Position numbers and translations under genes: made by a program. Below, piece by piece: positions 4,561 to 60,500 of a stretch of DNA of 64,000 nt. Numbering within the stretch: the first letter of the stretch is position 1; each line of letters opens with the position of its first letter. Source of the DNA: Macrosoma leucophasiata (lineage: Eukaryota > Arthropoda > Insecta > Lepidoptera > Hedylidae); NCBI GenBank assembly GCA_036365455.1, contig JAWQUS010000019.1, forward strand, positions 10,144,001-10,208,000. The letters are read 5' to 3'. Below the pieces are notes generated by a model. That model was given only the letters and a program-made list of their open reading frames with translations, was not told the origin of the DNA and made no database searches.

Positions 4561-4898
4561 CTTAACATCCATGTTAACTGCATGCATGTTTGCCATTAAT
4601 AGTCGTAACACACGTCCGGATTTGGTACGGAGCGGACAGCGGATTCGGTACGCTCCGAATCAAATCTGGCCGTGTTTAGAGGACATAGAGCAACACCGGA
4701 GGGGAGTAGCCACATGCAGCCTTACATCACTTAACATCCATGTTAACTGCATGCATGTTTGCCATTAATAGTCGTAACACACGTCCGGATTTGGTACGGA
4801 GCGGACAGCGGATACGGTACGCTCCGAATCAAATCTGGCCGTGTGTAGAGGGACATAGAGCAACAACGGAGGGGAGTAGCCATATGCAGGCTTTCCCC
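4561..4898 (+). repeat. Tandem duplication of a 169-bp unit
   Basis: Two units, each starting 'cttaacatccatgttaactg' and containing 'acgtccggatttggtacgg' and 'gagcaacaccggagggg'-like ends. The second leads into the full MITE at 4853. Confidence 0.85.
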
Positions 4899-6024: not shown

Positions 6025-6194
6025 GCGCCCTGTAATTTCCGGCACAGAGGAATAATACTTTAGTCCTCAGGAGTGGTAACATCTGCATTTTGACCTTTGG
6101 TCGTTGTGTTTGGTGTCTATAGGCCGCAGTCATCACTTAACGTCTGCTGACTGACGAACTGCATGCTTGTTTGCCACTTCTATAACATAAAAAA
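6025..6194 (+). repeat. SINE-A copy nested in a MITE
   Basis: Truncated copy from 'ccctgtaatttccggcac' to its A-run, inserted in the MITE at 5592-6358. Confidence 0.75.
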
Positions 6195-22600: not shown

Positions 22601-23597
22601 TGAACTTAGCACTAACATCCGTGTCAGAATGGGGTGAAACCAATTTGGTCAAGTTTAACACCCAAAAAACTCAGACATGCCTTTTCTCTGCAAAAAAGAG
22701 CCCGTTTTCCTTCTCCCCAACGCTAAATAATGAGCCCATAACTTTGGCAGACCATTTAGACCTATTAGGTGTAACTTTAACACCCACGCTGAATTTTTTT
22801 TTTTTTTTTTATGTTTTGGAAGTGGCAAACAAGCATGCAGTTCACATTGATGTTAAGTGATGACTGCAGCCTATAGACACCCACACAAAGACCAAGGTCA
22901 AAATGCAGATGCGTTGCCACTCCTGAGGCCTAAGGTGTTATGCCTCTGTGCCGGAAATTACAGGGCCGTACATTTCGGTATTTACCTTGATAGCAAGGCT
23001 AAATTAGCTGGTATGAAGGTTGGGGTCCTGAATAAGGTTAGGAGGTACTTCACACCACGTCAGTTGCTTAATTCGTATCAAGCACAAGTTCGGTCGTGTA
23101 TGGAGTATTGTTGCCACCTTATGGACGGGTCGGCCAAATACCAGCTCGAAGCCCTTGAGTCGGTTGATCGGCGTGCTGCGAGAATAATCGGAGACACAAA
23201 GCTAGTAAACACGAAACTGCTCAGTCTTGAACATCGCCGTAAAGTGGCGTGTCTCTCAATTTTCTATAGGATCCATTTCGGCGAATGTGCGAACGATCTA
23301 CACAATCTGATTCCCTCCTCACCTTTTTACAATAGGACAACTAGGAGAACGGCGAAATATCATCCCTACACAGTGAACATACCACAAATTAGAACGAAGC
23401 GTTTCGGCTCTACATTTATTATACGTACAGCTAAGTTATGGAATACTTTGCCGGCTTCTTTGTTTCCAAAAAACTACAACCCGGGCATCTTCAAATCTAG
23501 AGTGAATAGGTACTTTCTAGACCAACGTGCTTCATCTTCGGCCACATCTTCACTTTCCATCAGGTGAGTTGGTGGTCAAACGTTGGTCTATTCAAAT

Positions 23598-23628
<31 letters not shown>

Positions 23629-26600
23629 CATCAACTTCTACGGCCCTGTAATTTCCGGCACAGAGGCATAACACCTTAGGCCTCAGGAGTGGTAACGCAT
23701 CTGCATTTTGACCTTGGTCTTTGTGTGGGTGTCTATAGGCTGCAGTCATCACTTACCATCAATGTGAACTGCATGCTTGTTTACCACTTCCATTAAGTAC
23801 ATAAAAAAACATCATCCCTTTTACCCTATTCTACTAGCTTATATAGTTACAGTAGAAGCTCTTTATTCGCGGGGTATACGTTCCGTAAATATGCCGCGAA
23901 TGCCGAAATCGTGAATACGGAATGGTAATTTATTATATAGAATTATACGTTCCTAGGCGACGTAATAAAAAAAAACAAACACATATAAAAACAATTGTTT
24001 TTATATTATTTCGCATTAACACATGCTTGTGAAATATATTTTATTTTTAAAGAAAAATGGAAAGAAAAATTTGACTTCAGGCGAGACTCGAACTCGCGAC
24101 CTACTGGGAATCTAGTCCAGCCGCTCTTCCAATTGAGCTACTGAAGCCCTGCCTAACTAGCATAGTTGGTAATAGATGGCGCTACTGCTATCATAAAGCA
24201 ATGCAATAGATGTGAAGGAAAGATTTGACAAATCGGGCAGGGCTTCAGTAGCTCAAGTGGAAGAGCGGCTGGACTAGATTCCCAGTAGGTCGCGTGTTCG
24301 AGTCTCGCCTGAAGTCAAATTTTTCTTTCCATTTTTCTTTAAAAATAAAATACATATAAAAACATTTAATTTTTTTGACCATTTTGTTACATATCTTCAG
24401 GTTTATGCCATGGTCCAATTGTGGCAGTATTCAATAATATACTTTATGTTTTGAGTAACAAGTTTGTTTTATCTACATTTTCTGTTTGTTTACATACCTA
24501 CTTAAAACACCGACCGCGGCGAAGGCGACTTTACCTCAAAGGAATCGTCGAATGAAACAAACAACGGCGTTAGCTTTTGAAAACAATCTAGGCATAGATG
24601 TAATAAAGTCTATTTTATTTATCTCTTGACGCGTTGACAAAGGATACCGAATACTTTTTATTTAGGGACATAATATATAATAATATGTACCGATGTACCG
24701 ATTCAATCCGCGAATAAAGAAATCTCAGGCCGCAAATATAGGACTTGAGTCGCATTTTTTCAATCCGCGATAAGTAAAAACGCGAATGAAGGAAGTGTGA
24801 ATAAAGAGCTTCTACTGTATGCATTCACATTAGTGATTGGTGAATATTGCAATATTCATTATTATTATAATATTTAGAGTTAGAGTCTAAAGAAATCTAA
24901 AAAAAAAACAAGCTATTATGTGATTCTTGAAATTCATAATAATAATAGTACGTAACTTCACGCCTGTAATCCCCGAAGGGGTAGGAAGAGGTAAATGCAT
25001 GCATTCGATTCGCCGGTTACGTTTTTGGCCCATGTAGGTAACAGGTGGCGAGCCTGTTGACATCTCCGGGCACATTACCAAACTTCGAGGGTACTGGGCA
25101 ATTTCCAGAAAATTGAAAAATCCCAATAGAACCAGAGATAAAGGACTTTCCACCATTATCTCTGATAACCCCCTACCCGGGAATCGAACCCAGGACCTCA
25201 GCGTAGTAGTAGTGACCTGCTACCACTAGGCTACTGAGGCAGTTATATTAGTTATAATAATAATGAATATAGGGCCTCCTTAGGCCTTCTTTTGACTCTG
25301 TACCAGAAATTACAGGGCCATACATTATTGTAACATACATTTTGTTTCACTTGTAATATATCTGCTTAATATTCCATTTGTAACATATTTAAACGGACAA
25401 TTTTGCATATTGTTCGACTTTTAACATTTACTTTGTGGTCCACTTGTAACGTGTACCATCACTACCATCGAAGTGGCGTCCAGTAATTCACGACATAAAA
25501 CATGATGATGTAGTGGAACTTTACTTTGTGTATTTTGTAAACGTTAATTTAATTTAATTTATTTTGTATTAAACAATTGGTTAAATCTTATAAACTACGT
25601 TAAACAATTATTAATTATATGTACAAACTTAATCCTAAACTAAATATAAACACTGTGTAAAAACTAAATATAAACATCTTATAAACTAAATATAAACATT
25701 GTATAATAAAAACGAATAATAACATGTAAAACTAATAATAAATAATAATTAACATAAATTTTGTATAGTATAAAAATATGTTTACATACATGCAGACATC
25801 CGTATGGATTTTATTAGTAGTGATGCGAGGCGGTGCTCGATGCACCCGAGACCGCCCGATCCCTCCCGAACGGCGACCGGCTACCTGCGCGTACGCCGTC
25901 GCCAACACGGCAGGACAATGCAGTCCGATCGTATCTGCTATCGACGCCAGACGCATATCGCTCGCTTGCTCTACTTGACACTCGCGAATATATCTTAGTG
26001 CTTGCCGCTGTTATATCTTAGTGCTTTCGCTTCTATTATCTTTCTTCCGTGCTGTCATATTACCCTTCTGTCTTTATATATGTAACGTGTGATTGTAGTG
26101 TGTAATAAACTTTGTGAAATAAGTGTGTTGAATATTATTCCCGGAACTGTAAGTACCGTACGCCTATCACACACCACTACCTATCCCGCTAAAATGATGT
26201 TTCGCAACTCGTCGCATAAAATATGTATTGCGATATGTCATGTTGGTGCTTGCGTTCGCACTGCTGTCAAGCCATCAATCATTTTAGTGAAACATCTCAA
26301 GATTTGTTGTTATCTGTGTTTGCATTAACTTATAACATGTCTTTTATTCATGTTTGTCTATGACATGTCTAAGTTGACGTTTGCATTGTCACTAGAAAAA
26401 TATTACAAATCACACAATTTGTTCTAAATTAGAGTTTTTTAAGTTTTCCGAACCATCTGGTAAACACGAAACATGTAGTGGACAAGATCCAATACCCTGA
26501 GTGTAAATCTGACGACCTAATCAAACAACATGTTCCAAGACTTCTTATTGATAAAACTTGTTGCAATTCAAATCTTTTGATTTGTTGTCTTTTGTTTGTC

Positions 26601-29600
26601 TTTTACATGTTTCATGACAGTGCAAACGAGATACGCGATAGAGCTGAGTCGATCGCGAGCGATAGAATCACTTTGATTGAATCACGATCCTAACACAAGT
26701 GATCGGGTCGTGACGTACAAAAAAAGTCGATCATTTGGATCCTTTGGGTCATTGGGTACTTTGTTTCTCGTGAACTCTATTATAAAACTGATAGAGTACA
26801 CTTCAGTTTGTTTACAGTTTTATCGATCATGCTCCCCTGCACCATGTCATCTAATTGTAAAATTTATGCGCTACCAAATGTCAATTTGTAAAGGTTGTTT
26901 ATTCTATATAATCGCATTGTATTCTATGCAATAGCTTTACCGGTGCAGTTCCTGAATGCCGATTTTTTTCCTATAAATTAATCCTATTTACTTATAAAGT
27001 TTCAGAATGAAATTATTGTTAAATAATTGAATTGTATTAACATGATAAATAGCCAGCGACATAATGTGTGGATCGCGGTCTCGAGTCTTGCATCCTTATC
27101 AGATGGATCTCGAATCACGAGAATCATGAGCTACAATATACGTTTGAGCGAAATCGAGTCGCGACCCAAATGACCCAAACGATCGAGTCATTTAGACTCG
27201 ATCACCTTGTCAATGGGTCGCGATCGACCCGAATCTCGACGAAGGAGTGATCGACTCAGGTCTAATACGCGATGCAGTGATTTTAACATGTTGTTACATG
27301 TGTGTTCCACTTTAATACTGACAGTCACATTTTATTTTGATTTAATACTTTGTTCCATTATCATGCTGAAATTCACATTTTGTTCCACGTTCATACTGAC
27401 AGTCACATTTTGTTCCAGTTTAATACTGACAGTGCTACAAAAAGATGACCCAGCGGTGGCAGACAGAACAGTATCAGCGTTGCCCGCAGACTACGTACCG
27501 ATGTTGCTGGAGCAGCTAGCAGATATGGCCACAAAAAAAACTAGCCAGTGAGTGCCTTTTTCTCAATAACTAACATATTTAAAATAACAATTATGAAATC
27601 ATGATTCTTTGAGATTAATTCTATAAGGACAGTTTTACATGATAGTAATAATGGGCACGAGTCTCTCGCCTTTTTTTTAGAAAAATAAGAAAAATGGCGA
27701 AAATTTTTTTGGCTTCGGGCAGGAATCGAACTTGCGACCTCAGGATGACCAGGTTTGATTCTTGCCCGAAGTCTATTTTTCTTTTCCCATTTTTCTTTAT
27801 TTTCTAATGTTTTCTTTTAATTGTATTTTTTTTTGTATTCCAGATGTGGCTCGGTATGCACGTGGGCGACAGCCTGCGTGTCGCGGCACTCCGCCCTCCT
27901 GCTGGCCTCCCTCCGCGCGCCCGCCGCCGCACACCTCACACACCTGCTGGCCGTGTTCACTCACAGGTACAGTACCCAATAAGGGTTCCCTAATCCACTG
28001 CGGCCACTGCAAGAGGTGTTTTTTTATGTAATGGAAGTGGCAAACAAGCATGCAGTTCACATTGATGTTAAGTGATGACTGCAGCCTATAGACACCCACG
28101 CAAAGACCAAGGTCATAATGCAGATGCGTTACCACTCCTGAGGCCTAAGGTGTTATGCCTCTGTAACGGAAATTGCAGGGCCGTGTATTACCACCTGCCC
28201 GGAACACGATAGTGCTGAACACTACCATTTAGCGGCAAGTATTAGGTAATGCGGTGGTACCTTCCCCCGCGAGCTCCGTCACTGGAGCTCTACGTAGAGA
28301 AATACGTAGAGAATATGTAATAATACTAAGTATAGAATGGATACTTCGACTTCCCCGCCCGATTTCCCCGCCTCACCCAACCTCCTCCCCTCTTATGGGC
28401 GAAGGTTGGTGTTCTGCGTGCTACGCACACAGGTGCACGTGTAAATAAATATATAAATAAGCCTTTTTATTCTGTATCTATAGGGTTACAAGTTTTCATG
28501 TATGTATTTTAATTTCTATTAACAAGTTTATAAATAGTGTTATTTGTTAGTTCCTAGTCTTATACTATGTTAGTAGTGTTAGTAAGACACAGTCCCGTTT
28601 TGGATGTAGGCCTCCTCCATCCTTTTCCAAATCTCCCGGTTTTTGGCCAAGTTGAACCATCTACTGCTAGCTGTCTGGGCTATATCGTCAACCCAACGTT
28701 TATTAGGTCAGCCAACCTTCCTGTTTCCTAGTGGACCTTTCCAGATTGTTGTTCTCCTTGTCTACCGGTTATCAGGAAGTCGTAAAACATGACCTGCCCA
28801 GAGCCATTTGAGTTGAAGTGCATGTTTTAATGCATCTGTTAATTTGGTTTTGCTTCGTATGGTTACGCTTTTTACTTTCTGTATTTTTCTTACTCCTGTG
28901 ATGATTCCTTCCATGGATCTCTGGGTGGTTGTAATTTTCTGTTGGAGTTTCTTAGTGTGGACCCAGGTTTGACATCCATATAGCAGACTAGGTTATATGC
29001 AAGTGTCCATTATAATTTTCTTTAGGTCCAAGGTGTGATTTCCTTTTAAAATTTCTTTCAGTGACCAAAATTTTCTCCAAGCTATTTTTACTCTTCGTTG
29101 TATTTCTTCTTCATTACTACTAGTACTGAATGTCACTTGTTTGCCTAGATATATGTAGGTTCCTGCATACTCTATGTTATTTCCCTTGACCTGAATTGGA
29201 TTTTTAATGCTGTTTGTCATTAACCTAGTTTTATTTGGGTTCATTTCTAAGCCTATTCTAGAGCTTTCACTATCTAATGAGCAAATCATTTCCTCTAGAG
29301 TATATGATGTTTCTGCCAGGAGAACTATGTCATCTGCAAATCTCAGATGGCTTATATATTTTCCACCTATTTTCAGGCCTATGTCTGACCAGTTTAGTTT
29401 CTGGAAAATGCTTTCTAGTACAGCTATGAATATTTTAGGTGAGATGGGGTCCCCTTGTCTCACGCCTCTTTCGATTTTGATTTGGATGCCTCTTGTCTCT
29501 AGTTTTACTTTGCTTGTACTATTTTCATAGATATTTTTTAGTATATTTATGTATTCACTGTGAACATTAGAGAGTTTCAGTGCATTTCAGATTGAGTTAT

Positions 29601-39591: not shown

Positions 39592-42500
39592 CTACGCCTT
39601 CGGCGGAGGCCTGAACACTCCTACTACAACCGCGTGATCTCTTTCATAAGGCTCTAATGTGAGTTGTTCTTGAGGTTTCAACTTGTCTGCTTGTAATTTT
39701 TTAACCTCGGCTGCAAACACTGCTTCTGGTTGCGCTGTCGAGTCTATACATGATGCCTGTGAAAGAAAATTTGATATGAATTATTATGTTCCTTTCGTGT
39801 TGAGTTTGAAATGATGTCGGTATAAACCTCAGTGAGAGAGTTCAATTTCATTCAACATGAAAGATTTAGATAGGTTTGTGTCATCACAGGAAGACTTACC
39901 CTCTTATTCATGCAGGATAGAAAAAGGCAAAGGACAGATTAGCAACACTTTAGCTAAAATACGTTTATGAATAAGGGGGTAAGTATTTACGCAGCTCTAT
40001 TCAGCATGAATAAAACAACAAAAATAAAATTCGTTGTCTCGTCTGTAAAGTCTGTTTATTTTATTTTAAAGAAACCATTTTTTTTTGTAATGGAAGTGGC
40101 AAACAAGCATGCAGTTCATACAGATGTTAAGTGATGACTGCAGCCTATAGACAGCCACACTAAGACCAAGGTCGAAATGCAGATGCCTTACCACTCCTGA
40201 GGCCTAAGTTGTTATGTCTCTGTGCTGGAAATATACAGGGTCGTACATTACCACCTGACTAGACCACGATATTGCTGAATGAACACTACCATTTAGCGGC
40301 AAGTATATCAGGTAATGCGGTGGTGCCTACGCCCGCGAGCTCCGTCACTTTAGCTCTACCACTATTGTGTTCCAACAAAACAACAGAGACAAATAACTGG
40401 ACCACTAATTGGTGGTAAGTAATTTTAACTGGTGGTAAAGCTCCAGTGTAGAAGCTCGAGGGCATAGACACCACCGCATTACCTAATCTATCTGCCGCCA
40501 AACAGTAGTGTTTCGGTTATATGGTAATATAGGGCCCCGAGACAGAGCAACACGGGCCACCGATCGCGGCGGACCGGAGGGGAGTAACCATAGCGTTTAT
40601 TACCGATGCAAAATAGTCTGTCATTTTTTGCGGGGGGAAATGCAAAACAGAACTACAAAAATCGTTTATAACTACGAAACCCACACCTTGACTAACAAAA
40701 TACAGAGACAATTTCACACACACATTTAAACATCTAGGCGACAGGTATAGGCCCATTTGGGCTTGTAATTTGACAGAGGGGAAAGCCTGCATATGGCTAC
40801 TCCCCTCCGGTGTTGCTCTATGCCCCGAAATAACTATTACAGAGACATAACAATTAAAATATCAGGGATGTCAACGCATCTGCATTTTGATCATGTCTTT
40901 ATGTGGGGGGGGGAGGGCTGCAGTCATCTCTTAACATCAATGTGAACTGAATGCTTGTTTGCTACTGAAAAAATAACTGTTTTGGCAAAGACATTTAAGC
41001 GTGCATGACTGTTCCGGATATATGTATTACTACGAAACTCACACCTTGACTTTAACAAAATACAGAAACAATTTCACGCACACATTTAAACATCTAGGCG
41101 ACAGTTATAGGCCCATTTGGGCTTGTAATTTAACAGAGGGGAAAGCCTGCATATGGCTACTCCCCTCCGGTGTTGCTCTATGCCCCGAAATAACTATTAC
41201 AGAGACCTAACAATTAAAATATCAGGAATGTCAACGCATCTGCATTTTGATCATGTCTTTATGTGGGGGGGGGAGGGCTGCAGTCAACATCAATGTGAAC
41301 TGAATGCTTGTTTGCTACTGAAAAAATAACGTTTTTCTTTCCTAAAAGTCTACAAAAATATATAAAATAAAATTCTTACCTTTATAGATATAACAAAATG
41401 TCCACCATTCTTCAGAAAGTGTTGGGCATTTAAACTAACTATCCTAGCTTGGTCGGGTTGCGCGACGTCCGCGAATATTGTGTCGACCATACCCACGAGC
41501 ATTCTGCAAGTACATGAAAAAGAAAAAAGGGTAAGAAATATGTAGGGGGTAGTTGAATATTGTACCTTTCTAGGTTATATCAGAGAGAGAGTTCAAGTTT
41601 GTATCAACATGAAAAATTTAGGATGTCTTGTATTCATCATTATATTTGTTATATTTACATTACAGTATTTTGTACAGTCCAATTTCAAACGAACATTATT
41701 TGTAGCAACGTAAATTGTAATCCCCGAAGGTAAATGCATGCATTCAAGCATATATGCAACACCATTTTTTTTGTATTTGTTCTTACAACTAACTATAAGA
41801 CACATTTTTATCGCTATTACATTCCAAAAGATTCCAAAAGAGAAACATTTTATTTTCTCCATACAAAAGTGACCCACCCTACTACTCAAGCCCCACTGCA
41901 ATCCAAGGATAGATAAGCGAGCTGTACATAGCCGTGGGCCATATTCGTGTACTCCACTCCCAGTGGAAACGTAGACGTTGAGCTATGTAACCGCCTATTC
42001 GAGCTAGCCACGCATGTGTCAATGACGTCAATCCATGTGTAGCCTCTTCGTGGGTTGCAGTGGACACTACCACATACAATTTCATATAAAGCGAAGCTTA
42101 ATACACGTGCGCAGTCTCTCCATGCGCCGCGGTGTTCTCCTCCACTAGAGAACCTTACTGGTGGTAGAGCTCCAGTGACGGAGCTCGCAGGCGTAGGCAC
42201 TTGCCGCTAAATGGTAGTGTTCAGCACTATCGTGACCCCGTCAGGTGGTAATGTACGGCCCTGTAATTTCCGGCACAGAGGCATAACACCTTACGCCTCA
42301 GGAGTGGTAACGCATCTGCATTTTGACCTCTGGTCTTTCTGTGGGTGTCTATAGTCTGCAGTCATCACTTAACATCAATGTGAACACCATGTTTGTTTTA
42401 CACTTTCATGCAGATGCGTTACCGCTCCCGAGGCCTAATGTGAACTGCATGCTTGTTTGCCACTTCCATTACATAAAAAAAGAAAAAAGGGCGATGGGGT

Positions 42501-45500
42501 CGTCACGTCACGATGACAACTTCCACAATATAAAAAAAAAAAACAATAATTTAGTATATATACTCAAATATTTTAGAAAACGTTATATAACTTACCTATA
42601 TTTCAATGGATGCCGGGCGTCTTCAATAATTGGAATGATATTCGTTCTTTTCTTGGCAACATTTATTAAGTCCCTTCCTGATCTGTGCGAGAATTCCACT
42701 GCATAAACCAAACCTTCCTGGGAACAATCAAACAATACTGTAAAGACATTTTACAGATTTTGTGTTCATGTCAATTTCTGTTAGTTAATCAGTTTAGTGG
42801 GTGATGATATAAGATAGTCTTCACAAATAGGTCAGAAATTTGTTTTCATCATTTTAACTATGTAATAGTCTTCACAAATAGATAGTAGGTTCTTGAATTT
42901 GTTACCTTAGCAAATAGTTCAAGACTCAGGATCAGGGACTCGTCCATATGTGAATGTGGCTTGGACGACGGAGACGTCAATCACATATTTTTGTCCTGTC
43001 CTCGTTATAATCGGTCCCAATTTATGAAAACTCTGCAGAAACTTGTCCCCTTTCCTATTAATATTCCTACTCTCCTATCCCTATCCGTATCAAATAAAAA
43101 AATCCTTTACTGTATTGTAAATTTTGTACATATAAATAAGATAAGACTGTAACTAATGTATATATATTGTTTTTTTTAATTGTCGAGTTATATAATAATA
43201 TTTTAAAATAGTAATACTAATATTTATCCATTACTTTTATCATGTGGCGTTGTTACTAACTACTAATCATTGGTTTTTCCATCGTAGATTAAATGAAATT
43301 TATAACGTGGCATAATTATTCGTAACGTTGCGTTAACTTTTTCAAAAATCAAACGTGATGCTGGCAGATACCTATCGGTGAAAGCCAAAATGGAAAAAAA
43401 AAAAAAAAAAAAATAGTTCAAGACGATCATTCAGTCAGTCACACAGTTGAATCGAATTATTGTAAGGCAGTAATGCTGCCACTTAGAGTGAACGTCAGTG
43501 ATATAACGCGGGTAGTTCTGAATCAAATGGGCAGAAGACTAGTGATAGTAGTAGTATCGTATCCTGATAAATATGGTTTCCCGGTCCGAAGGGTTTCTTG
43601 CCCGTTCTTCCCTGCCGGAGGTAATCGAATGGGCGGATCTTTGGCAATATACGACTTTCTTCTGCCAACCTGTGCTTTATTTCATGATCCGCTCGAGTGG
43701 ACCTACAGATGCTCACAAACACAACATAGGTCCATTAGTCGGATCTAGTTTCCAATTTATGAAAATAATATAATATTCATTTGAAGACAATTTTGACCTG
43801 GTAATACAAATGACAGAGTCAAAAAACTTAGAGTTACAATGTTTATTCATTACTGCTGCCACTGTGAATGCAGACGAAGTCGCTGGCACCAAATAGTTAA
43901 ATAAAAAATTATTAAGTTTGTATTCTAATTTTGAAAACTATCATACCGGTCCAACAATATCGGAGACATGGCTAACTGTAGTACCACTGGCTGCACCCAG
44001 GTACAACACTCGAGAGCCAGGCGGCATGTGTATAGCATCCACACCGCCCATTATAGCTGCTGCCAACTTCGATCTGAACGGATTCCATACTCTGTATTCC
44101 ACTTTCTCACCTTCAGTCTGAAAAAAATATTTAAGGCTGTTGACCATTTTCAATTTATAAGTGATTTTGGTATTTACTGGGGATTATTATCAGAAGTGGG
44201 TGTGTGGATATAGTCTTCATGACTAGGTCAAGATTAGAGGGACCACAATCATCATTTGATTCCTTTTGTATATACTCATGTAGGCCGGACGTCCTGAGGT
44301 GGGGATAGTCTACTTCACCGTAGGTGAGCGCATAAGGTGATGGCGCCTAATTAAACGTAAGCGCAACTGCCTAAGACCCCTGAGGGTTCGAACTTCTGCT
44401 TAGGACGTAGCGGAAGGGCAGATAAGACATATGCGATTCGGAGTGGTGCAACATTCACAACAATAAAAAAATAAAAAGACTGGGCAAACAAAAAAATAAT
44501 AGTGAAATTACATTATTTTTCGTAAACGTGAATATTCATGATATGAAAGTCCTTTTTCGTAATGCATAATCCCCCCATTGTTTTTTTTTTTTAATTAACA
44601 TCACAAGTCCCTTAATTTGTAGTCAGATTGCGTGGTGAGCCAAATATCCCAGTTCTCACAAACCTCTCGTGGTTCTTCTATATTCATTACTCTCTTCATA
44701 CAGGCACGACGATTGACGATTGATACTACACAACCTATTTGACGAACATCGGTCTGTTTTTGCCATCCTGGGCTATCTACTTTTGCATTGTATATCTATC
44801 AATCACCTTCAACATTCTTTATGCATATTTTGTGCTTAAAGTTACTACAAAAGAAAATCTACATATTTAAACTCACTTCAACTGATATCCTTTTCTCACC
44901 GTACACCTCTGAGCCGGGCACTAAATTCTTTGTCACCAACGCATCTTCTTTGCCTCTGGCTATGAAAACACCAGCGTGTCTGAAAATAAATTGCATGTTC
45001 AAGTATATGGAATCATTTTGGCAACTTAAAAATTTAGACATAACAATTGGATCAGTAACAAATGAAGTTGGCTTCAAGCGTTTGCTTTCAGAAGAACGAA
45101 AGTTATATGTTTAGCATCATATCAATTTAGCATTATATCATTTGTTCTAGGCTAGACCCATTAATTCAAACACTAGGTTATCCAAGTCTAAACTTGTATT
45201 TCTGACTCGCATCAGATATTCTACTGGCTTACATGTAGTACTATGGTGTGATATAGGGTATGGATTGCGAAACATTGGCACGTGACATAAATTTTGGGCA
45301 TGCAAGTTTTCACAAATTTACTACGAAATTAGAAAGAGTTAAAAATTGAAATAAAATGCCAAAATAACAATGACTATTTAAATTAATTTTAGTAGTGTTT
45401 TGATAGCACAGATGTCCTGTTTACCCTGGACCTTTATAACCAAAACAAGGCCTTTTCAAAGATTTTTCATGTAAATTATCCCACAGCACTTCCATGGCCT

Positions 45501-47566
45501 ATTTAAACTCTACTTTACAACAAAATGTGGATGCTGATACAAAAAATTTTGAACCACTGAAATAGGGATTTTGACCCGTACTCTGTGAAACAGGAATCTC
45601 TACCCTACCACCTAGCGCAGTCATATTAGGAACCTTATTATTTAAAAAACATTGTCAGCATTTTTTTATACACATCTGTTTCTAATTTGTATTTTTTTCA
45701 CAAACCTGTGTGGTTCGATGATAACTTGCTTGCCTCCCTTAAATCCTCCTCTCTTAGGGGGCCCACCACGACCGCGGCCTGTGAAGTAAATTTTCTGTTA
45801 AAAATATATAGTAATACAACTGTATGACATTTGGATAATAATAGTTGATCAGAAGTGGGTATGTGGTATCATAGTCTTCATGAATAGGTCAAGATTAGAG
45901 GGACCATTCTATCATCATGTAATCTAACATGGATTAGACATGGTAATAATGAAAACGAATTATTTAAATTCTAAATGCTGTTTTAATTTACGAGCAGATA
46001 CTAGACTTAAAACCATTGCTAATAAAAACTGGATCGTATTGTTGCATTTCAATGTTTTACCTCCGCCACCTCTCCCTCCAAATCCCCTCCCACCGCCGCC
46101 TCCGCGCTTCTCAAATTTGCCGCCACCGCCACCACCGCGGCCGCCACCGAAGCCCCCTCGGCCTCCGCCGCCGCCCCGACCGCCGAAGCCCCCGCGGCCG
46201 CCGCCTCGCCCGCCGAAACCACCCCGCCCACCGCCAGGACTATTGAATTCTGAAAAATAGAAATGTTTTACACAGGCTTTGGCACGTGACGACCCCACCA
46301 CCCCAGCGAAAGAATCTTTTTCGCTAATGAAGTTAGTCAATTCCGAACAATGGCGATCAAACCATTCCAATGGGATGATAGTTAGTGCAATTGCACAAGA
46401 TGGGCAGCAACTGCGATCAGTCATTTGATTATAAGCAGCCTCGCCTCGCCAAACCATCTTCATCACTGCATCTATCTAGATGCAGTGATGAAGATGGTTT
46501 GGCGAGGTGGGACCAGTGTCCCAAATCAGCACATTGGCTTGTTTCAATCTACTAATGGTTGTCTAGCTAGACCCCATTGAAATTCAATTGTCATATTTTT
46601 CTCGTGACTTGACGAGTTAAAGAAGTCTGGGGAAAAAAATTGTTGTTTATACTGTGTTTCCAAGTAGTATGAACTTTGGTGCACAAATTCATAACAATAC
46701 AGCTTGAGGGAGTAAATACTACAACTTAAGATTACTACATAAAAACTGGTCGCAATGTCCATGCTAATTGTAAAAGCTTGGGAAGTTTTATCTAAACAGC
46801 TACTTACAAAGCTGTTTACAGGAACCTAAAGAGAACCAGTAAGCACTAAAATAATACACCGAGAAATAGGTATTTAATGCGGTGCCTACATCCTAGAGCT
46901 CAGAGTTTAAGCATTTCAACTAAAGAATTGCATTGCTTCCATTGTGGATTGTATACCATGAATTACCATAAGGGAATTTACTCATGCATTTTTTCTTCAC
47001 ACGGCATTTACCTCACACATATAGCCAACTTAACATCTCTTATCATCAGCCTGTAACATATTTTTTTTTTTTTATTCTATTTTTTTAAAGGGGTTTTGTC
47101 TAACGACATGTCAACCCCATCGTACCCAATACAAACTTAAACCATTACTTCTCCAACAATTAAATTTACTAAAACATTTGGACCTCACACTTCATAACCT
47201 CAAAAGTAACTCGTGAATACGGGTCCTAATAATTGCACGTGGGAGTAACGGCACTGTATTAGTTAATAAAGTGGTTATGGTGCTTTTCAAGTAACTTTTC
47301 TGTAATTATAATAAAATGCAGGGATAAAGATTGAACAATCGACGACATAACCTTGCTAATAAATTTAGTTGAAAATCTTCGAACACGTATAAGTTGTGTC
47401 AGAATTTTAGCATCAGTTGTGGCGATTAATCTTCGTGTTTCTTTGGTATAATACTAAAATCAATACAACTAAAGAATATGATCAAATATCCACGCGGAGA
47501 CCACATGTAACATTTGATGATAATTGATATAGAAATATAAGTAAATAACTTACCGGGCTTGCCCAT
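39592..47566 (-). CDS. Fib: Fibrillarin, rRNA 2'-O-methyltransferase, complete 8-exon gene
   Basis: Exons in transcript order: 47566-47554, 46249-46061, 45778-45706, 44979-44877, 44117-43947, 42717-42596, 41503-41380, 39756-39592. GT-AG sites and phases close to 319 residues, the usual size. Exon 1 codes only for MGKP plus one base. Exon 2 is the GAR domain (RGG/GGRGGF repeats). Exon 3 gives [20 protein letters not shown]. The methyltransferase domain follows: [15 protein letters not shown], the SAM-binding loop [72 protein letters not shown], and the C-terminal [12 protein letters not shown]. Fibrillarin is the catalytic subunit of box C/D snoRNPs and also methylates histone glutamine. The gene converges on WDR43. 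Introns 2, 4, 5, 6 and 7 carry candidate box C/D snoRNAs in the sense orientation; intron 5 also holds an antisense LINE tail and intron 7 a duplicated MITE-SINE segment. Confidence 0.96.
39822..39893 (-). ncRNA. Box C/D snoRNA in fibrillarin intron 7 (candidate D)
   Basis: Minus strand: box C GTGATGA (39887-39881) and box D CTGA (39832-39829), 59 nt apart. The element before D, TTGAACTCTCTCA, has 12 nt complementary to the same 28S segment as candidate E and puts D+5 on the same A. It also shares TTTCATGTTGA in the middle with candidate E, so the two are paralogues. The terminal stem is weak (CC/GG after one unpaired base). Confidence 0.65.
39902..40420 (-). repeat. Composite repeat, copy 1 (with nested SINE-A)
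   Basis: Begins with a 'cttattcat...tttatgaataag' foldback unit, then 'gcagctctattcagcatg', a SINE-A (40085-40369), and ends at 'ggaccactaattggtgg'. The whole unit recurs in the opposite orientation at 58535-59060. It is in fibrillarin intron 7. Confidence 0.85.
40671..41330. repeat. Tandem duplication of a MITE-1 plus SINE segment
   Basis: Units 40671-40977 and 41029-41330 match closely, including the same G-run (tgtgggggggggagggctg) and the same SINE-A truncation. MITE-1 sequence starts further left at 40545. It is in fibrillarin intron 7. Confidence 0.88.
41576..41644 (-). ncRNA. Box C/D snoRNA in fibrillarin intron 6 (candidate E)
   Basis: Minus strand: TATA, box C ATGATGA (41640-41634), box D CTGA (41583-41580), TATA (4-bp terminal stem). 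The sequence just upstream of D, CTTGAACTCTCTCT, is a 14-nt complement of the conserved 28S rRNA segment AGAGAGAGUUCAAG (recalled). By the D+5 rule the target would be the A in AGAGA. No clean D'/C' pair is seen, although TTGA and GTTGATA-like sequences are present. Confidence 0.75.
42157..42480 (+). repeat. SINE-A with a duplicated tail
   Basis: The copy runs to 'cactttcatgcagatgcgtt' and then shows a second 'aatgtgaactgcatgcttg' tail before its A-run. It is in fibrillarin intron 6, antisense. Confidence 0.75.
42782..42860 (-). ncRNA. Box C/D snoRNA in fibrillarin intron 5 (candidate A)
   Basis: Reading the minus strand: 7-nt stem TAGTTAA, box C ATGATGA (42852-42846), D' CTGA, C' GTGAAGA, box D CTGA (42792-42789), then TTAACTA, which pairs perfectly with the 5' stem. 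The total of 79 nt is typical. The element upstream of box D is ATCACCCACTAAA; only 10 nt separate C from D'. It shares the segment around C' (CCTATTT-GTGAAGA-CTAT) with candidates B and C. Just upstream there is a partial duplicate of the C' region. This is the structurally clearest of the five. Confidence 0.8.
42905..43412 (+). mobile_element. LINE 3' end with poly(A)
   Basis: The frame around 42950-43150 includes [17 protein letters not shown], the zinc-knuckle-like ending of non-LTR polymerases, followed by AT-rich 3' UTR and an A-run ending near 43412. It is antisense in fibrillarin intron 5, next to snoRNA candidate A. Confidence 0.65.
44186..44260 (-). ncRNA. Box C/D snoRNA in fibrillarin intron 4 (candidate B)
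   Basis: Minus strand: box C ATGATGA (44255-44249), D'-like TTGA (44231-44228), C' ATGAAGA (44220-44214), box D CTGA (44193-44190); C to D spans 66 nt. Upstream of D' lies GGTCCCTCTAATC, whose core is complementary to the conserved 18S segment UUAGAGGGAC (recalled). Upstream of D lies CACACCCACTT. The terminal stem is weak (three pairs with a mismatch). It is a clear paralogue of the intron 2 candidate. Confidence 0.68.
44279..44445 (+). repeat. Unclassified interspersed repeat
   Basis: GC-rich block 'gtaggccggacgtcctgagg...gggttcgaacttctgct' with a B-box-like GGGTTCGAAC. In fibrillarin intron 4. Confidence 0.4.
45115..45700. other. Fibrillarin intron 3: no RNA or repeat seen
   Basis: Checked for box C and box D on the sense strand; none at snoRNA spacing. 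No recognised repeat. Confidence 0.5.
45843..45926 (-). ncRNA. Box C/D snoRNA in fibrillarin intron 2 (candidate C)
   Basis: Minus strand: box C ATGATGA (45918-45912), D'-like TTGA (45892-45889), C' ATGAAGA (45881-45875), box D CTGA (45852-45849); C to D spans 70 nt. It carries the same TGGTCCCTCTAATC guide before D' and ACCCACTT before D as candidate B, with substitutions elsewhere. Conservation is thus concentrated in the boxes and guides. The terminal stem is weak. Confidence 0.68.
46444..46507. repeat. Perfect 31-bp inverted repeat
   Basis: CCTCGCCAAACCATCTTCAT... and its exact inverse, separated by two bases (46475-46476). In fibrillarin intron 1, with no flanking duplication seen. Confidence 0.95.
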
Positions 47567-48862: not shown

Positions 48863-49472
48863 GTATGACGTAAGTAAATTGGTACTATCAGTGTATGTGT
48901 TGAGATCCATTATCGTGGACCCCCATTTTCATTTCATGGACACCCAAATTTTTTTTTTTACTGACTCAGACACCTTTCAGGTTGTCATAGACCCCCAGGG
49001 GTCGATATAGACCACTTTGGGAATCACTTATTTAGACGGTTAGGTTGCTGAAAATGGTAGATCACCGTTCAAGTTGGTCACACTGAATTAAACTTCCATT
49101 TTAATGCCCATAGACAATTTTAAACCCAATGTTGCCATCATGCCATTCTTAAGAAACGTAGTTATTTATAATATATAATATTTAATTTAAATTATGGGAA
49201 AAGATTCGTTTCTTACTGAATTTTAAATTATTTGTTGGATGAAAAGTATATCTACTCAATTATAGTTTAATATAGATGCAGCAATTGCATAATCTTGACT
49301 TGAAAACAGTTAACACAAGGATGCAACAAGAAACAAAATATAATATACCTACCATTTTATCTAGATTCATAGAACTAAGCAAAGAGTATACAAATACTTG
49401 AACTAAGTGCATACCGCAGCTGATAAGACTTAAGTGGTTAACACAAAGTACATTAATCAATCCACAATAAAC

Positions 49473-50805
49473 ATGGATAGCACTAACTTCGCCAATTTGA
49501 CCTTAAACGATTTCAAATGGCTTAATGAGCCTAGAAAATGGACAAAAGAAAATAATATACTTATGATGAGTACCGATAACAAAACAGATTTTTGGCAAGG
49601 GACCTATTATAATTTTCATTTTAATACCGGCCATGTATATGGAGTTGAAATCAAAGACGATTTCACTTTTGAGGTAAGTTTTTAACATAGCCATTGAAAA
49701 AATATTTATAATTAAACAAAAACCGACAAGAAATCTAAACTTAGTTCAACGTGTTGCGTGTCATAGGTACTTAGACTTTATTTTAGCCCACCATGGCCGA
49801 TGGCCCATTTTATTTTATTTTTTTACAGTGTTGCCAATTATGTTTTTAATATAATTTACTATTTTGGTACGTTTACAGGCCTGCATAGAAGCAAATTTTA
49901 CAACACTGTACGACCAAGCAGGATTCATGATATATTTAGACGAAAGACATTGGTTAAAAGCTGGAATTGAGTATAATGATGGACAACCTATGATAGGCAG
50001 CGTGTTCACCAATGAAATATCCGATTGGGCTACTGGTAATTAGTTAGAGCATTTTGAGCACGCATGGCCCCGCGGCTAATGTAGATCACAAGCGATTAGG
50101 TACTACTCTACACTACTCGGTTAAGCGATACGGGCGCGGTCGGCTGTGTGATGGGTGATGGGTGACCGCTAGTGGCAAATTAAATGCGCGTTTCCGTGCT
50201 TCGAAGGGCATGCTAAGCCGTCGGTCCCGGTTGCTATCGATAGATAGCAGTCGTTAAATCTTGCTGAAGGCCTTATGGGCGGTTTGAAAAACATCCGACA
50301 GTAGGTTAGCCACTAACCCGTATCTCACAATCCTGCATTGAAGCAGCGTGGTGGAGTAAGCTCTAGGCCTCCCCCCAAGAAGGGGAGAGACTCGTGCCCA
50401 GCATTGGGACGTATCAAAGGGTTGCCATTATTATATTATTTATTTAACATTTTATTAACTCAATCATTATCATAATGGCCGTTACCTACTGCAGTTAACA
50501 TTTATAAATTAAAGCATTGCTCTTAAAAAAATAGCATATGTTCATTTATTTTTACAGGTATTTTCCCCGGCAATCCAAACAAATTCTGGTTGCGCCTAAC
50601 AAGACTTCGCGACGTGATGTGCGTGAAGTACTCATGTGACAATATAACATGGACTCTTTTGAGGTTATGTTCGTTTCCCGCTATTCCCGCTGGACGCCAT
50701 TTTGTGGGTTTCATGTGCTGTTCCCCACAGAGGCAAGGGCTGGATGTAAAATTTAGTAATTTTACATTTTGTACACCTGCTGTTGATATATTGCATTCTA
50801 ATTGA
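49473..50805 (+). CDS. DUF1349 / REE1-like concanavalin-A-fold protein, complete 3-exon gene
   Basis: Exons 49473-49673, 49879-50035 and 50558-50805 give 201 residues with phases 0 and 1 and GT-AG sites. Sequence cues are FKWLNEPRKW near the N-terminus, TDFWQGTYYNF, EANFTTLYDQAGFMIYLDERHWLKAGIEYNDG in the centre (split by position, core DQAGFMIYLDERHW), NEISDWATG, and PAGRHFVGFMCCSPQRQGLDVKF near the end. This arrangement is that of the DUF1349 family, about 200 residues with a jelly-roll lectin-like fold. Its yeast member Ree1 affects enolase expression; the animal function is not established. The first ATG lies 39 bases inside a longer open frame that starts with GTG, so ATG at 49473 is preferred. 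Intron 2 contains a 5S-like SINE. There is no signal peptide or membrane segment, so it is probably cytosolic. Confidence 0.85.
50096..50440 (+). repeat. 5S-rRNA-like SINE
   Basis: Contains GATGGGTGACCGC, the 5S rRNA internal promoter motif, then 'ccgtgcttcgaagggcatgctaagccgt' in pieces and ends near 'gcccagcattgggacgta'. It is in intron 2 of the REE1-like gene. Confidence 0.6.
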
Positions 50806-52059: not shown

Positions 52060-52347
52060 TACTGGTGGTAGAGCTACAGTGACGGAGCTCGCGGGCGTAG
52101 GCACCACCGCATTACCTAATATACTTGCCGCTACATGGTAGTCTTCAGCACTATCGTGTTCCGGTCAGGTGGTAATGTACGGTTCTGTAATTTCCGGCAC
52201 AGAAGCATAACAACTTAAGCCTCAGGAGTGGCAACGCATCTGCATTTTGACCTCGGGTCATTGTGTGGGTGTCTATAGGCTGCAGTCATCACTTAACATC
52301 AATGTGAACTGCATGCTTGTTTGCCACTTCTATTACATAAAAAAATA
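52060..52347 (+). repeat. SINE-A, full-length
   Basis: Complete head to A-tail. A minus-oriented truncated copy lies at 52556-52720, after the AATC microsatellite. Confidence 0.85.
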
Positions 52348-52509: not shown

Positions 52510-53179
52510 TCATTTATTTACTAGAATGTAGTAAGTACATGCAGGTACAGATGTTAACAAACAAGCAAACAAGCGTGCAGCTTACATTGATGTTAAGTGA
52601 TGACTGCAGCCTATAGACATCTACACAAAACACAGAGGTCATAATGCAGATGCATTGCCATCCCTGAGACCTAAGTTGTTATTATGTCTCTGTGATAGTT
52701 ATTACGGGGCCATACAAGTGATATCAATTCGATTATTTTAAATTATTTCGAATGCAATTCGAAGCATAGATAGATCCCTAAACTTTTTTAAATAATGTGT
52801 ACCTACGACGACATTGTAGATACAATTTTTTTTTACAACATTTTTAATAGACTTGGAAAAAAGGAGGAAGTTATCAATTCGTCGGAAACTTTTTCTTTTA
52901 ATTTTTCATTTAATTTTTTTTTTACTAAGTATAACGTGAAAAATAATGAACATCGCGCATGTTAAATTAACATTTTATACTTATTTGAAATCTAATACTT
53001 ACAACTAACATAGGTGCTAATAACTAGAAATGCTTCTATGTTTTGTTTACTTACAGCGGATCATTCGACAATCACGCAATTAAACTACAATCAATTCAAC
53101 AAAATATACACTTGAACGAAAGGGTCGGTCTTATAGGCGACAGTTAGGTCTTAAAGGGTAAGTTAAACACGTTTTATGT

Positions 53180-53645
53180 AATAGAAGTGGCAAACAAGCA
53201 TGTAGTTCACATTGATGTTGAGTGATGACTGCAGCCTATAGACACCCACACAAAGACCAAGGTCAAAATGCAGATGCGTTACCACTCCTGAGGCCTAGGG
53301 TGTTATGCCTCAGTGCCGGAAAATTACAGGGCCGTACATTACCACCTGACCGGAACACGATATTGCTGAAAACTACCATTTAGAGCTCCATTGACGGAGC
53401 TCGCGGACGTAGGCACCACCGCATTACTTAATATACTTGCCGCTAAATGGTAGTGTTCAGCACTATCGTGTTCCGGTCAGGTGGTAATGTACGGCCCTTT
53501 AATTTCCGGCATAACACCTTAGGCCTGAGGAGTGGTAACGCATCCGCATTTTGACCTTGGTCTTTGTGTAAGTATTGACATAGGCTGCAGTTATCACTTA
53601 ACATCAATGTAAACTGCATGCTTGTTTGCCACTACCATTTCATTA
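53180..53645. repeat. Head-to-head pair of SINE-A copies
   Basis: A minus copy (53180-53386) meets a plus copy (53384-53645) at their heads and shares only a few bases, forming a long imperfect inverted repeat. Confidence 0.82.
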
Positions 53646-57527: not shown

Positions 57528-60500
57528 TCAAGCTCCATTCTGTTCCGTATAGTCCATGGGTTCGGTTTTCACTGATATCTGCACGTTTTGAGAGACCGGA
57601 GCTATTTTAGATCTTTCCAAGTTGTACATCTGCAATACAAAATAGTTTTTTTTAAGTTGGTTTATATAACAAACTACTATGCTTATATATCTTTGTCGCG
57701 AATAATCATAGTTGACATTGGTGGTAAATTAACAAATATCCTATCTATATACAATGTGTAACAGAATTAAATCGATAACTGAATCGATTTCAGGTGTTTT
57801 TAATATAGGTAAAAATAAGTCCCAAAATTAATTACAATTAAAGAAATAATGGTCACCCATTTGGCGAACAGTCAATACAAACGAAAATGACACTAACATC
57901 TATATATACAAATAAGTAAAATTGGAGTGTCTGTTTGTATGTATGTATGTATCTTCACGCCAGGTCCCTAACGGGGTAGGCAGAGAGTGTAGAGCGCCAG
58001 ATATCCCGTGTCTGTTTGTAATATAAAAATAACCGCTTTTTACTAAATGCTTAATTTTGTATACACGGTACATATACCAAAACAACATTTTTTTCAATTT
58101 TTGTCTGTCTATTTGTTCCTGCTAATCTCGGGAACGGATGGACCGATTTTGACGGGACTTTCACTGGCAGATAGCTGATGTAATAAGGAGTAACTGAGGC
58201 TACATTTATACTAGCTGCGCCCACGACTTCGTCTGGGTAGATACTGATCAATCATAAATTCTCAAGCGGAGGAAGTCGCGGGCACAGCTAGTAAATAATA
58301 ATTTAGGAAATAAAATCGTGAAAATGAAGCTTATTACTAGCGAATGTGAAATAGAGGTGCACAGGATACGCAACATCACATTGCGACAGTGTGGTTGCGT
58401 GAGTAGGTTTGTGTTCTATGTGCAGCCGTAGGTAGAGGTAATGTAAGTTTGCGTAGGGTGTGCATACTATTAGTAAAAATTGAGGAAATCTTATTTCTAA
58501 AATGAAAAATATTAACCCTCTTATTAGTGGTTAGCACCAATTAGTGGTCCAGTTATTTGTCTCTGTTGTTTTGTTGGAACACAATAGTGGTAGAGCTAAA
58601 GTGACGGAGCTCGCGGGCGGAGGCACCACCGCATTACCTGATATACTTGCCGCTAAATGGTAGTGTTCAGCACTATCGTGGTCAGGTGGTAATGTACGAC
58701 CCTGTATATTTCCAGCACAGAGGCATAACAACTTAGGCCTCAGGAGTGGTAAGGCATCTGCATTTCGACCTTGGTCTTTGTGTGGCTGTCTATAGGCTGC
58801 AGTCATCACTTAACATCAATATGAACTGCATGCTTGTTTGCCACTTCCATTACAAAAAAAAATGTTCGGCTTGTGACGCATGGTTTCTTTAAAATAAAAT
58901 AAACAGACTTTACAGACGAGTCAACGAATTTTATTTTTGTTGTTTTATTCATGCTGAATAGAGCTGCGTAAATACTTACCCCCTTATTCATAAACGTATT
59001 TTAGCTAAAGTGTTGCTAATCTCTCCTTTGCCTTTTTCTATCCTGCATGAATAAGGGGGTAAATATATAAATCTGTAATTTCAGTACATGTATAATGATT
59101 ACAACTCAATTTTACAACGGGTCGGACAGAGTGTTTTATAACCGTTAACGTAACTTCACGTAACTTCACGCCTGTAATCCCCGAAGGGGTAGGCAGAGGT
59201 AAATGCATGCATTCAAGCATACATGCAAACACCCACGATTCGCCGGTTACGTTTTGGCCCATGTAACAGGTGGCGAGCCTGTTGACATCTCCGGGCACAT
59301 TACCAAACTTGAGGTACTGGGAAATTTCCAGAAAATGGAAAAATCCCAATAGAACCAGAGATAAAGGCTTTTTCACCATTATCTCTGATAACCCCCTACC
59401 CGGGAATCGAACCCAGAATCTCAGCGTAGTAGTAGTGGCCTGCTACCACTAGGCTACCGAGGCAGTTTTTAACCGTTACACGTTGTATATATAAAAAGTC
59501 CATCGCGGACAAACACCGCCACATAATTTATGAATATTAAGAGATTATACTCTGTGGTTATTACCTTCATAAAGAGAGGTGTGGAGAGTTGAGCGACGCT
59601 GGTGGCTTTACTGAGCGACTCGTCCATTTCCGACGCGAACGTCACATCGACGGGCGGCACCTTCATCTTGGGATAACGTTTCCGAGATAAGTGCTCTTCT
59701 TCGGAATCAGACGGCGGTGGTCGGATCTAAAAATAAATAAAACAACTTACGAATTGACCAAGACTGACCTACCATGACCAAATAGGTCGAGTTCTGTCTG
59801 ATGGTGGGGTCAAAAGTCTTAGGAATCGGCGTGCATATATGAATAGAATGATGAAGGTAGATGAGTCACGGGGGGTGTGTCAGGACCGGGCTATCTGGCG
59901 CTCCACTCTCTGCCTACCCCGTTAGAGACCTGGCGTGAAGATATATACAAACACAAACTCAAACACAAAAATTCGTTTAATCACTTGGAAATAATAGAAT
60001 TTGCTTGTGATAGGTCAAATTAGAAATATAAAATTAAAGCGAATAACAATTGATACTGAGTTGATTAATATGTCAAGGTTAACAAAATAAAATAAATAAT
60101 GGTCCAAAACACTAAATAATAAAAATAGGTATCAACAGAATGTTCCAAAACACTAAATAATAAAAATAGGTATCAACAGAATGTTCCAAAACACTAAATA
60201 ATAAAAATAGGTATCAACAGAATGTTCCATACTCTCTTTTACAAACGGCAAGAAAAGACTAAACAAAAAAATATGGGACATTCTTTGTCATTCACACACA
60301 ATAACTTACGGTGGAATTTACTAATATTCTTAGATGATTTCACTACTGTATTCCCTGAAGAGATACGTCAAGTCCTTTAGGGGGTAGGCAGAGAGTGTTA
60401 AGCGCAAGATATCCCGGTCCTGACAAACTTCCCGTGCCTCATCTACATTCATCATTCTCTTCATACATGCACGCCGATTCCTAAGACTTCTGACCCACCA

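What the first reader, a model, noticed from the sequence alone, without database searches (positions are those of the whole stretch)
39822..45926. Fibrillarin introns host a set of five box C/D snoRNA candidates
Introns 2, 4, 5, 6 and 7 each contain one sense-strand unit with box C (RTGATGA) and box D (CTGA) 59-70 nt apart, or 64 nt with internal D'/C' and a 7-bp terminal stem in intron 5. They fall into two paralogous groups (A/B/C and D/E), as expected from intron-to-intron duplication. The host encodes the methyltransferase that such guides direct. Arabidopsis fibrillarin genes are known to host the C/D snoRNA U60, so this would be an independent, larger case in an insect. I am not aware of a described insect example.
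Basis: partly seen in the sequence, partly recalled or inferred. Interest (0 to 1): 0.92.

Follow-up and report, generated by a model that had tools for sequence, protein, structure and literature searches.

The report
Six snoRNAs inside moth/butterfly fibrillarin gene
Six of the seven introns of this insect's fibrillarin gene each carry one small guide RNA of the kind that fibrillarin protein uses to methylate ribosomal RNA, so one transcript would supply both the enzyme and several of its guides; it is an unusually full example of an arrangement known from plants and from related genes.

Summary
The gene (minus strand, 8 GT-AG exons, 47566-39592) encodes a complete 319-aa lepidopteran-type fibrillarin. 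A scan of all seven introns finds such units in introns 2-7 only, box D 70-76 nt from the 3' splice site in each although these introns span 282-1623 nt. That is where intronic C/D snoRNAs are expected. Similarity between the intron 2 and 4 units starts at box C and stops one base after box D. Five of six units have an rRNA guide: intron 3 to 18S AAGAACGAAAG; introns 6 and 7 to 28S AGAGAGTTCAA, as SNORD81; introns 2 and 4 to 18S TTAGAGGGAC, as SNORD127 but one nucleotide shifted. Intron 5 has textbook boxes and a 7-bp stem but no target. Limits: no Rfam gathering score is reached, the rRNAs tested are not from insects, the 28S site was found in 1 of 22 stretches plus an insect primer, and there are no expression or cross-species data. 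Very probably real snoRNA genes; a new member of a known kind.

The parts
39592..47566 (-). Host gene: fibrillarin, 8 coding exons (47566-47554, 46249-46061, 45778-45706, 44979-44877, 44117-43947, 42717-42596, 41503-41380, 39756-39592), 319 aa with GAR domain and methyltransferase domain
   Evidence: All 7 introns GT-AG, in-frame joining; Pfam Fibrillarin PF01269, 362.6 bits; fibrillarin chain 7mq8_SC E 6.8e-136; highest identities, 97-99% over residues 80-319, are with Lepidoptera among the 120 proteins listed
45849..45918 (-). Intron 2 C/D unit (E2): C ATGATGA, D' TTGA, C' ATGAAGA, D CTGA; D' guide GGTCCCTCTAA
   Evidence: 70 nt, box D 70 nt from 3' splice site; D' guide pairs over 10-14 nt with 18S TTAGAGGGAC in 4 of 6 SSU stretches; 4 of 2000 shuffles as good; 90% identical to intron 4 unit, from box C to 1 nt past box D
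45052..45120 (-).
   Evidence: Rfam SNORD59 32.9 bits, gathering 45, E 8.3e-4 and 9e-5; box D 72 nt from 3' splice site; 11-14 nt pairing with 18S AAGAACGAA(A/G)G in 5 of 22 stretches; 2 of 2000 shuffles as good
44190..44255 (-). Intron 4 C/D unit (D4): C ATGATGA, D' TTGA, C' ATGAAGA, D CTGA; D' guide GGTCCCTCTAA
   Evidence: 66 nt, box D 72 nt from 3' splice site; pairing with 18S TTAGAGGGAC listed in 3 of 6 SSU stretches; 12 of 2000 shuffles as good
42789..42852 (-). Intron 5 C/D unit (C5): C ATGATGA, D' CTGA, C' GTGAAGA, D CTGA, 7-bp terminal stem TAGTTAA/TTAACTA; target unassigned
   Evidence: 64 nt, box D 71 nt from 3' splice site; stem; shares its 3' half with the intron 2/4 units; no convincing rRNA duplex
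41580..41640 (-). Intron 6 C/D unit (B6): C ATGATGA, D CTGA, 4-bp stem; D guide AACTTGAACTCTCTCT, SNORD81-type
   Evidence: 61 nt, box D 76 nt from 3' splice site; AACTTGAACTCTCTC shared with the Rfam SNORD81 consensus; 12 nt pairing in 1 of 22 stretches, L002; 14 nt abutting box D match an insect 28S-D2 primer; 24 of 2000 shuffles as good
39829..39887 (-). Intron 7 C/D unit (A7): C GTGATGA, D CTGA; D guide TTGAACTCTCTCA, SNORD81-type
   Evidence: 59 nt, box D 72 nt from 3' splice site; GAACTCTCTCACTGA identical to the SNORD81 and nematode ceN114 consensus; 11 nt pairing in L002 only; 54 of 2000 shuffles as good

Best explanation
Introns 2-7 of this fibrillarin gene each encode one box C/D snoRNA. 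Each is released from the spliced, debranched intron by exonuclease trimming after a C/D snoRNP, fibrillarin included, assembles on it about 70 nt upstream of the 3' splice site. The mature snoRNPs guide 2'-O-methylation of rRNA: the intron 3 unit at the SNORD59 site of 18S, the intron 6 and 7 units (isoforms) at the SNORD81 site of 28S, and the intron 2 and 4 units (isoforms) at the A of 18S TTAGAGG. The intron 5 unit is a snoRNA with unknown target. Shown: gene structure, boxes, spacing to the splice site, guide identity, box-bounded similarity of the intron 2/4 pair. Inferred: expression, processing, snoRNP assembly, methylation.
For: C/D pairs in introns 2-7 with box D 70, 72, 72, 71, 76 and 72 nt from the 3' splice site; of 2,000,000 random placements none had a span of 6 nt or less (smallest 34). 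Simulated introns and the antisense strand lack this placement. [quoted passage not shown] that 70-76 nt to the splice site and insects fit this is my inference. Guides: of 2000 shuffles each, 2 (X3 D'), 4 (E2 D'), 12 (D4 D'), 24 (B6 D) and 54 (A7 D) match or beat the observed rRNA duplex. Guide identity with SNORD59 and SNORD81. A 28S primer used on a beetle in PMC10829047 (one passage) pairs with 14 nt of the intron 6 guide up to box D and 12 nt of the intron 7 guide. Intron 2/4 similarity (90%) runs from the first base of box C to 1 nt past box D, none detected in the flanks; intron 6/7 similarity (42 nt) ends exactly at box D.
Against: No unit reaches an Rfam gathering score; the best Rfam match of intron 7 is SNORD29 (23.5 bits) and of intron 5 snR61 (24.8 bits), whose guides are not shared. 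Stems touching the boxes are weak in introns 2, 4 and 7: in the strict scan only introns 5 and 6 pass. Folding energies are ordinary for all six (z -1.53 to +0.31). Seven of 12 guide stretches tested are no better than shuffles, and with 12 tests only X3 and E2 pass a Bonferroni cut; B6 and A7 rest mainly on SNORD81 identity and the primer. The stretches for that test were chosen. The rRNAs come from unidentified, non-insect eukaryotes in bacterial MAGs; the 28S site was in 1 of 22 stretches. PMC13228274 (section 6) describes human-specific methylation in 28S 398-400 and 18S 1383-1668 relative to Drosophila, so the intron 6/7 and 2/4 sites may not be methylated in flies. No expression data and no cross-species alignment.
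Confidence: 0.92

Rival explanations
1. Some of the six are functional guides, but one or more (best candidate intron 5, then the weaker copy of each pair) are decaying duplicates or orphans without rRNA guide function.
For: Intron 5 guides find no rRNA duplex beyond shuffles (D: 1453 of 2000, D': 172 of 2000 shuffles as good or better). It shares only its 3' half with introns 2/4. The D-side guides of introns 2 and 4 have no good target either.
Against: Intron 5 has the longest terminal stem of the set and sits at the same 71 nt spacing, which a dead copy need not keep. Only non-insect rRNA was searched, so a target may have been missed.
Confidence: 0.3
2. The units act in cis: snoRNP assembly on fibrillarin pre-mRNA controls its own splicing or stability, as SNORD86 does for NOP56, rather than mainly guiding rRNA methylation.
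For: The host encodes a core protein of the particle; NOP56/SNORD86 precedent (PMC11028025, passages).
Against: Five of six units carry rRNA guides; none overlaps a splice site, all lie 70-76 nt away at the usual processing position. No alternative splice form was examined.
Confidence: 0.07
3. The box patterns are chance or come from a repeat family that carries RTGATGA and CTGA mostly 59-60 nt apart.
For: 14 of 18 strict C/D hits in the window are, by eye, copies of such a repeat (TGTTAAGTGATGACTGCAGCC...CTCCTGAGGCCTA), one of them in intron 6 sense (42368-42298).
Against: None of the six units matches that repeat; blastn of each unit against the window (E 0.1) finds only its paralogues plus one 19-nt and one 17-nt match. 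The copy in intron 6 lies 794 nt from the splice site.
Confidence: 0.02

Closest known systems
Arabidopsis FIB1/FIB2 hosting U60.1F/U60.2F (PMC8053127, passages; Barneche et al. 2000 only as cited there)
   Same: Fibrillarin gene hosts an intronic C/D guide snoRNA for large-subunit rRNA
   Different: One snoRNA per gene with target 25S-G2125; here six units in six introns with guides for three rRNA stretches
Human NOP56/SNORD86 (PMC11028025, passages)
   Same: A gene for a core C/D snoRNP protein hosts a C/D snoRNA in its intron
   Different: SNORD86 is described as an orphan acting in cis; here five of six units have rRNA guides and none overlaps a splice site
Rfam SNORD59 (RF00273)
   Same: ACTTTCGTTCTT directly before an internal CTGA, identical and in the same register in the intron 3 unit
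   Different: Scores 32.9 against a gathering score of 45; box C is ATGATGC; hosts of SNORD59 elsewhere not checked
Rfam SNORD81 (RF00136) and nematode ceN114 (RF01618)
   Same: Guide TTGAACTCTCTC (SNORD81) or GAACTCTCTC (ceN114) before CTGA, same register, in the intron 6 and 7 units
   Different: In SNORD81 this guide precedes the internal CTGA (D'); here it precedes the terminal box D. Matches are far below gathering scores
Rfam SNORD127 (RF01186)
   Same: Guide core GTCCCTCTAA shared with the intron 2 and 4 units (consensus seen)
   Different: Used from D' not D, and with one more base before the box, so the fifth-nucleotide rule points one nucleotide 5' (A instead of G of TTAG). Rfam did not list SNORD127 for these two units

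Membership tests
box C/D snoRNA | Box C RTGATGA near the 5' end and box D CTGA near the 3' end | tested here: met
   5 of 6 units exact; intron 3 has ATGATGC, one base off
box C/D snoRNA | Internal D'/C' boxes | tested here: inconclusive
   Read by eye: clear in introns 2, 4, 5; D' clear and C' degenerate in intron 3; poor in introns 6, 7
box C/D snoRNA | Terminal stem bringing C and D together | tested here: inconclusive
   7 bp intron 5, 4 bp intron 6; 5 bp in intron 3 a little away from the boxes; under 3 bp next to the boxes in introns 2, 4, 7
box C/D snoRNA | Guide of 10 nt or more next to D or D' complementary to rRNA | tested here: met
   5 of 6 units (introns 2, 3, 4, 6, 7); not for intron 5. 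Non-insect rRNA plus one insect primer
box C/D snoRNA | Intronic position at a fixed distance from the 3' splice site | tested here: met
   70-76 nt in 6 of 6
box C/D snoRNA | Expression as a stable RNA bound by Snu13, Nop56, Nop58, fibrillarin | not testable with these tools
   No RNA or protein-binding data at hand
SNORD59 (intron 3 unit) | Rfam gathering score | tested here: not met
   32.9 of 45 bits; called SNORD59-like by guide, not filed as a member
SNORD59 (intron 3 unit) | Same guide and register to 18S | tested here: met
   ACTTTCGTTCTT/CTGA identical; 11-14 nt pairing in 5 of 22 stretches, none listed for the SSUs of L007 and L011
SNORD81 (introns 6, 7) | Rfam gathering score | tested here: not met
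   23.9 and 15.5 of 50 bits; the match fits only around the guide; not filed as members
SNORD81 (introns 6, 7) | Same guide and register to 28S | tested here: met
   Consensus identity; insect primer; 1 of 22 rRNA stretches

The most novel reading that the evidence does not exclude
The fibrillarin gene of this lepidopteran is a dedicated, self-regulating unit: nearly every intron yields a C/D guide, and snoRNP assembly on six successive introns of the nascent transcript lets fibrillarin level feed back on its own splicing while setting guide supply. The intron 2/4 isoforms would also direct methylation one nucleotide away from the SNORD127 site.
Probability: 0.08. Interest if true: 0.75.

Novelty: new member of a known kind. 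Interest (0 to 1): 0.45.

Why it matters
It couples production of the methyltransferase and guides for three rRNA stretches in one transcript, with one snoRNA per intron in six of seven introns. If conserved in Lepidoptera, it is a natural setting to test whether snoRNP assembly regulates the enzyme's own gene, and how guides spread between introns while keeping a fixed distance to the 3' splice site. It also predicts three rRNA methylation sites, two of which may differ from Drosophila.

Tried and rejected
Whole-genome search for this insect's own rRNA: the genome search did not complete. So rRNA from eukaryotic contamination in bacterial MAGs was used (15 loci; one search was given 9 of them and found rRNA in all 9).

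Relatives of the gene or units in viral contigs: none. Species-to-species conservation could not be tested; intron paralogues were used as a substitute.

Targets for the D-side guides of introns 2, 3, 4 and 5, and the D' guides of introns 5, 6 and 7: nothing beyond shuffles (a mismatch search of five of these gave no convincing site). One search, without the exact five-base seed, scored the intron 3 D guide higher (11 nt with one G-U, in L012), without a shuffle control. A near-match of the intron 5 guide to 18S CTTAGTTGGTGG has an internal mismatch and scores low.

Fold stability: uninformative. Intron 1: no C/D pair and no snoRNA match, which covers all but the 53 bases at its 5' end; its best Rfam hits are microRNA models on an inverted repeat.

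Human target numbers for SNORD59, SNORD81 and SNORD127 are recalled and left out of the argument; look-ups for them found nothing. The phrase search returned no paper at all, not even on Arabidopsis, so it is weak evidence of absence.

Full report
Host gene. On the minus strand, eight exons from 47566 to 39592 join in frame with GT-AG at all seven introns and give 319 residues with an RGG-rich start. Pfam Fibrillarin covers residues 88-314 at 362.6 bits. A full-length fibrillarin chain (7mq8, human by recall) aligns over residues 4-318. Of 7990 hits, 120 were listed: the top score is a longer dragonfly protein at 89% identity, while the highest identities, 97-99% over residues 80-319, are with Lepidoptera. 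The host is an intact fibrillarin gene of lepidopteran type; the species was not determined.

The units. A sixth, in intron 3, was found by Rfam as SNORD59 at 32.9 bits (E 9e-5 when a 921-base stretch is searched). A scan for RTGATG followed by CTGA, total length 55-80 nt, on all seven introns gave one pair in each of introns 2, 3, 4, 5 and 7, two in intron 6 and none in intron 1. The opposite strand gave one pair in all. Simulated introns with the same dinucleotide make-up had a pair in 0.35 of 7 introns on average and at most 3 (1000 simulations). The scan was written after the units were known, so its limits suit them; the controls used the same limits.

Spacing to the splice site. Box D ends 70, 72, 72, 71, 76 and 72 nt before the exon in introns 2 to 7, while box C lies 142 to 1492 nt from the 5' splice site. 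In two million random placements the six distances never fell within 6 nt of each other (smallest span 34).

Guides. The intron 3 unit carries ACTTTCGTTCTT directly before an internal CTGA, identical to the SNORD59 consensus, and pairs over 11-14 nt with 18S in 5 of 22 rRNA-bearing stretches (SSU of L015, L014, L013, L006 and the SSU part of L004; none listed for the SSUs of L007 and L011). The intron 6 and 7 units carry TTGAACTCTCTC before box D. The Rfam SNORD81 consensus has AACUUGAACUCUCUCACUGA and nematode ceN114 has GAACUCUCUCACUGA. The matching 28S stretch AGAGAGTTCAAG was found in 1 of 22 stretches (L002), but an insect 28S-D2 primer, AGAGAGAGTTCAAGAGTACGTG (used on a beetle, one passage of PMC10829047), pairs with 14 nt of the intron 6 guide right up to box D and with 12 nt of the intron 7 guide. 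The intron 2 and 4 units carry GGTCCCTCTAA two bases before a TTGA D' box and pair over 10-14 nt with 18S TTAGAGGGAC, present in 4 of 6 SSU stretches. SNORD127 has the same core with one base before its box, so by the fifth-nucleotide rule the predicted target here is the A, not the following G.

Control for the guides. Of 2000 shuffled guides each, 2, 4, 12, 24 and 54 match or beat the observed duplex for introns 3, 2, 4, 6 and 7. The other seven guide stretches, including both of intron 5, are not clearly better than shuffles. With 12 tests only introns 3 and 2 pass a Bonferroni cut; introns 6 and 7 rest mainly on identity with SNORD81 and on the primer. The D' boxes were chosen by eye, and the 7 of 22 stretches used were picked.

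What limits this. The rRNAs are eukaryotic rRNA found in bacterial MAG contigs, of unidentified and apparently non-insect origin. No unit reaches an Rfam gathering score. Stems next to the boxes are weak in introns 2, 4 and 7 and folding energies are ordinary. A Drosophila preprint (PMC13228274; abstract, section 6, legends and passages) reports human-specific methylation in 28S 398-400 and 18S 1383-1668 compared with fly. If these include the SNORD81 and SNORD127 sites (my inference, numbering not checked), the lepidopteran guides would mark a difference from flies, or the target calls are wrong.

Duplication. blastn among the 3' parts of introns 2-7 (from 100 nt upstream of box C to the splice site) finds introns 2 and 4 90% identical from the first base of box C to one base past box D and nothing outside. 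Introns 6 and 7 share 42 nt that begin inside the unit and end exactly at box D. Introns 2 and 5 share a 53-column stretch of the 3' half that runs 7 nt past box D; a few shorter matches of 10-21 nt link other pairs. Either the flanks have drifted while the units were kept, or the unit itself was copied; both fit functional snoRNAs. The intron 3 unit shows no similarity to the others.

False friends. A repeat in this window (TGTTAAGTGATGACTGCAGCC...CTCCTGAGGCCTA) carries box C- and D-like words 50-60 nt apart, mostly 59-60, on both strands and makes up 14 of 18 strict hits, by eye. One copy is in intron 6 sense at 42368-42298, 794 nt from the splice site. It is not counted as a unit.

Known context. 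Arabidopsis FIB1 and FIB2 host U60.1F and U60.2F (PMC8053127, passages). Human NOP56 hosts SNORD86, which senses NOP56 level (PMC11028025, passages). A Drosophila paper shows Myc binding at the Fibrillarin locus and speaks of 84 snoRNA host genes, but the passages I saw do not name Fibrillarin among them (PMC4430873). In the listings I saw no report of an insect fibrillarin gene as host; for most papers I saw only title and abstract start, and subscription papers are not covered.

Verdict. Six intronic C/D snoRNA genes, five with an rRNA guide, in the gene of their own methyltransferase: very likely real, a new and dense example of a known arrangement.

Noticed in passing
window 22857-22926, 28072-28141, 40131-40200, 52597-52667, 53222-53291 (+); 58740-58809, 52222-52292, 42298-42368, 23683-23752, 18472-18532, 16788-16857, 6067-6136, 4495-4561, 3990-4060 (-): Copies (grouped by eye) of a repeat with snoRNA-like RTGATGA/CTGA words 50-60 nt apart; a trap for C/D snoRNA finders in this genome.
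   Followed up: partly
window 46439-46512: Long inverted repeat in intron 1 that matches several Rfam microRNA models below their gathering scores; probably a small transposon.
   Followed up: no
window 40660-41340: Two direct copies of a roughly 300-base stretch in intron 7, seen by eye.
   Followed up: no
window 42865-42881: A 17-base exact copy of part of the intron 5 unit just upstream of it, possibly a remnant of another unit.
   Followed up: no
window 24072-24148 (-) and 24241-24317 (+): Two divergent tRNA-Ser (AGA) genes by ARAGORN; Rfam at gathering lists only the first, and also a tRNA-like stretch at 19685-19744 that ARAGORN does not.
   Followed up: no
window 49434-50805 (+): ORF fragments of an apparent protein gene upstream of fibrillarin on the other strand; not identified.
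   Followed up: no
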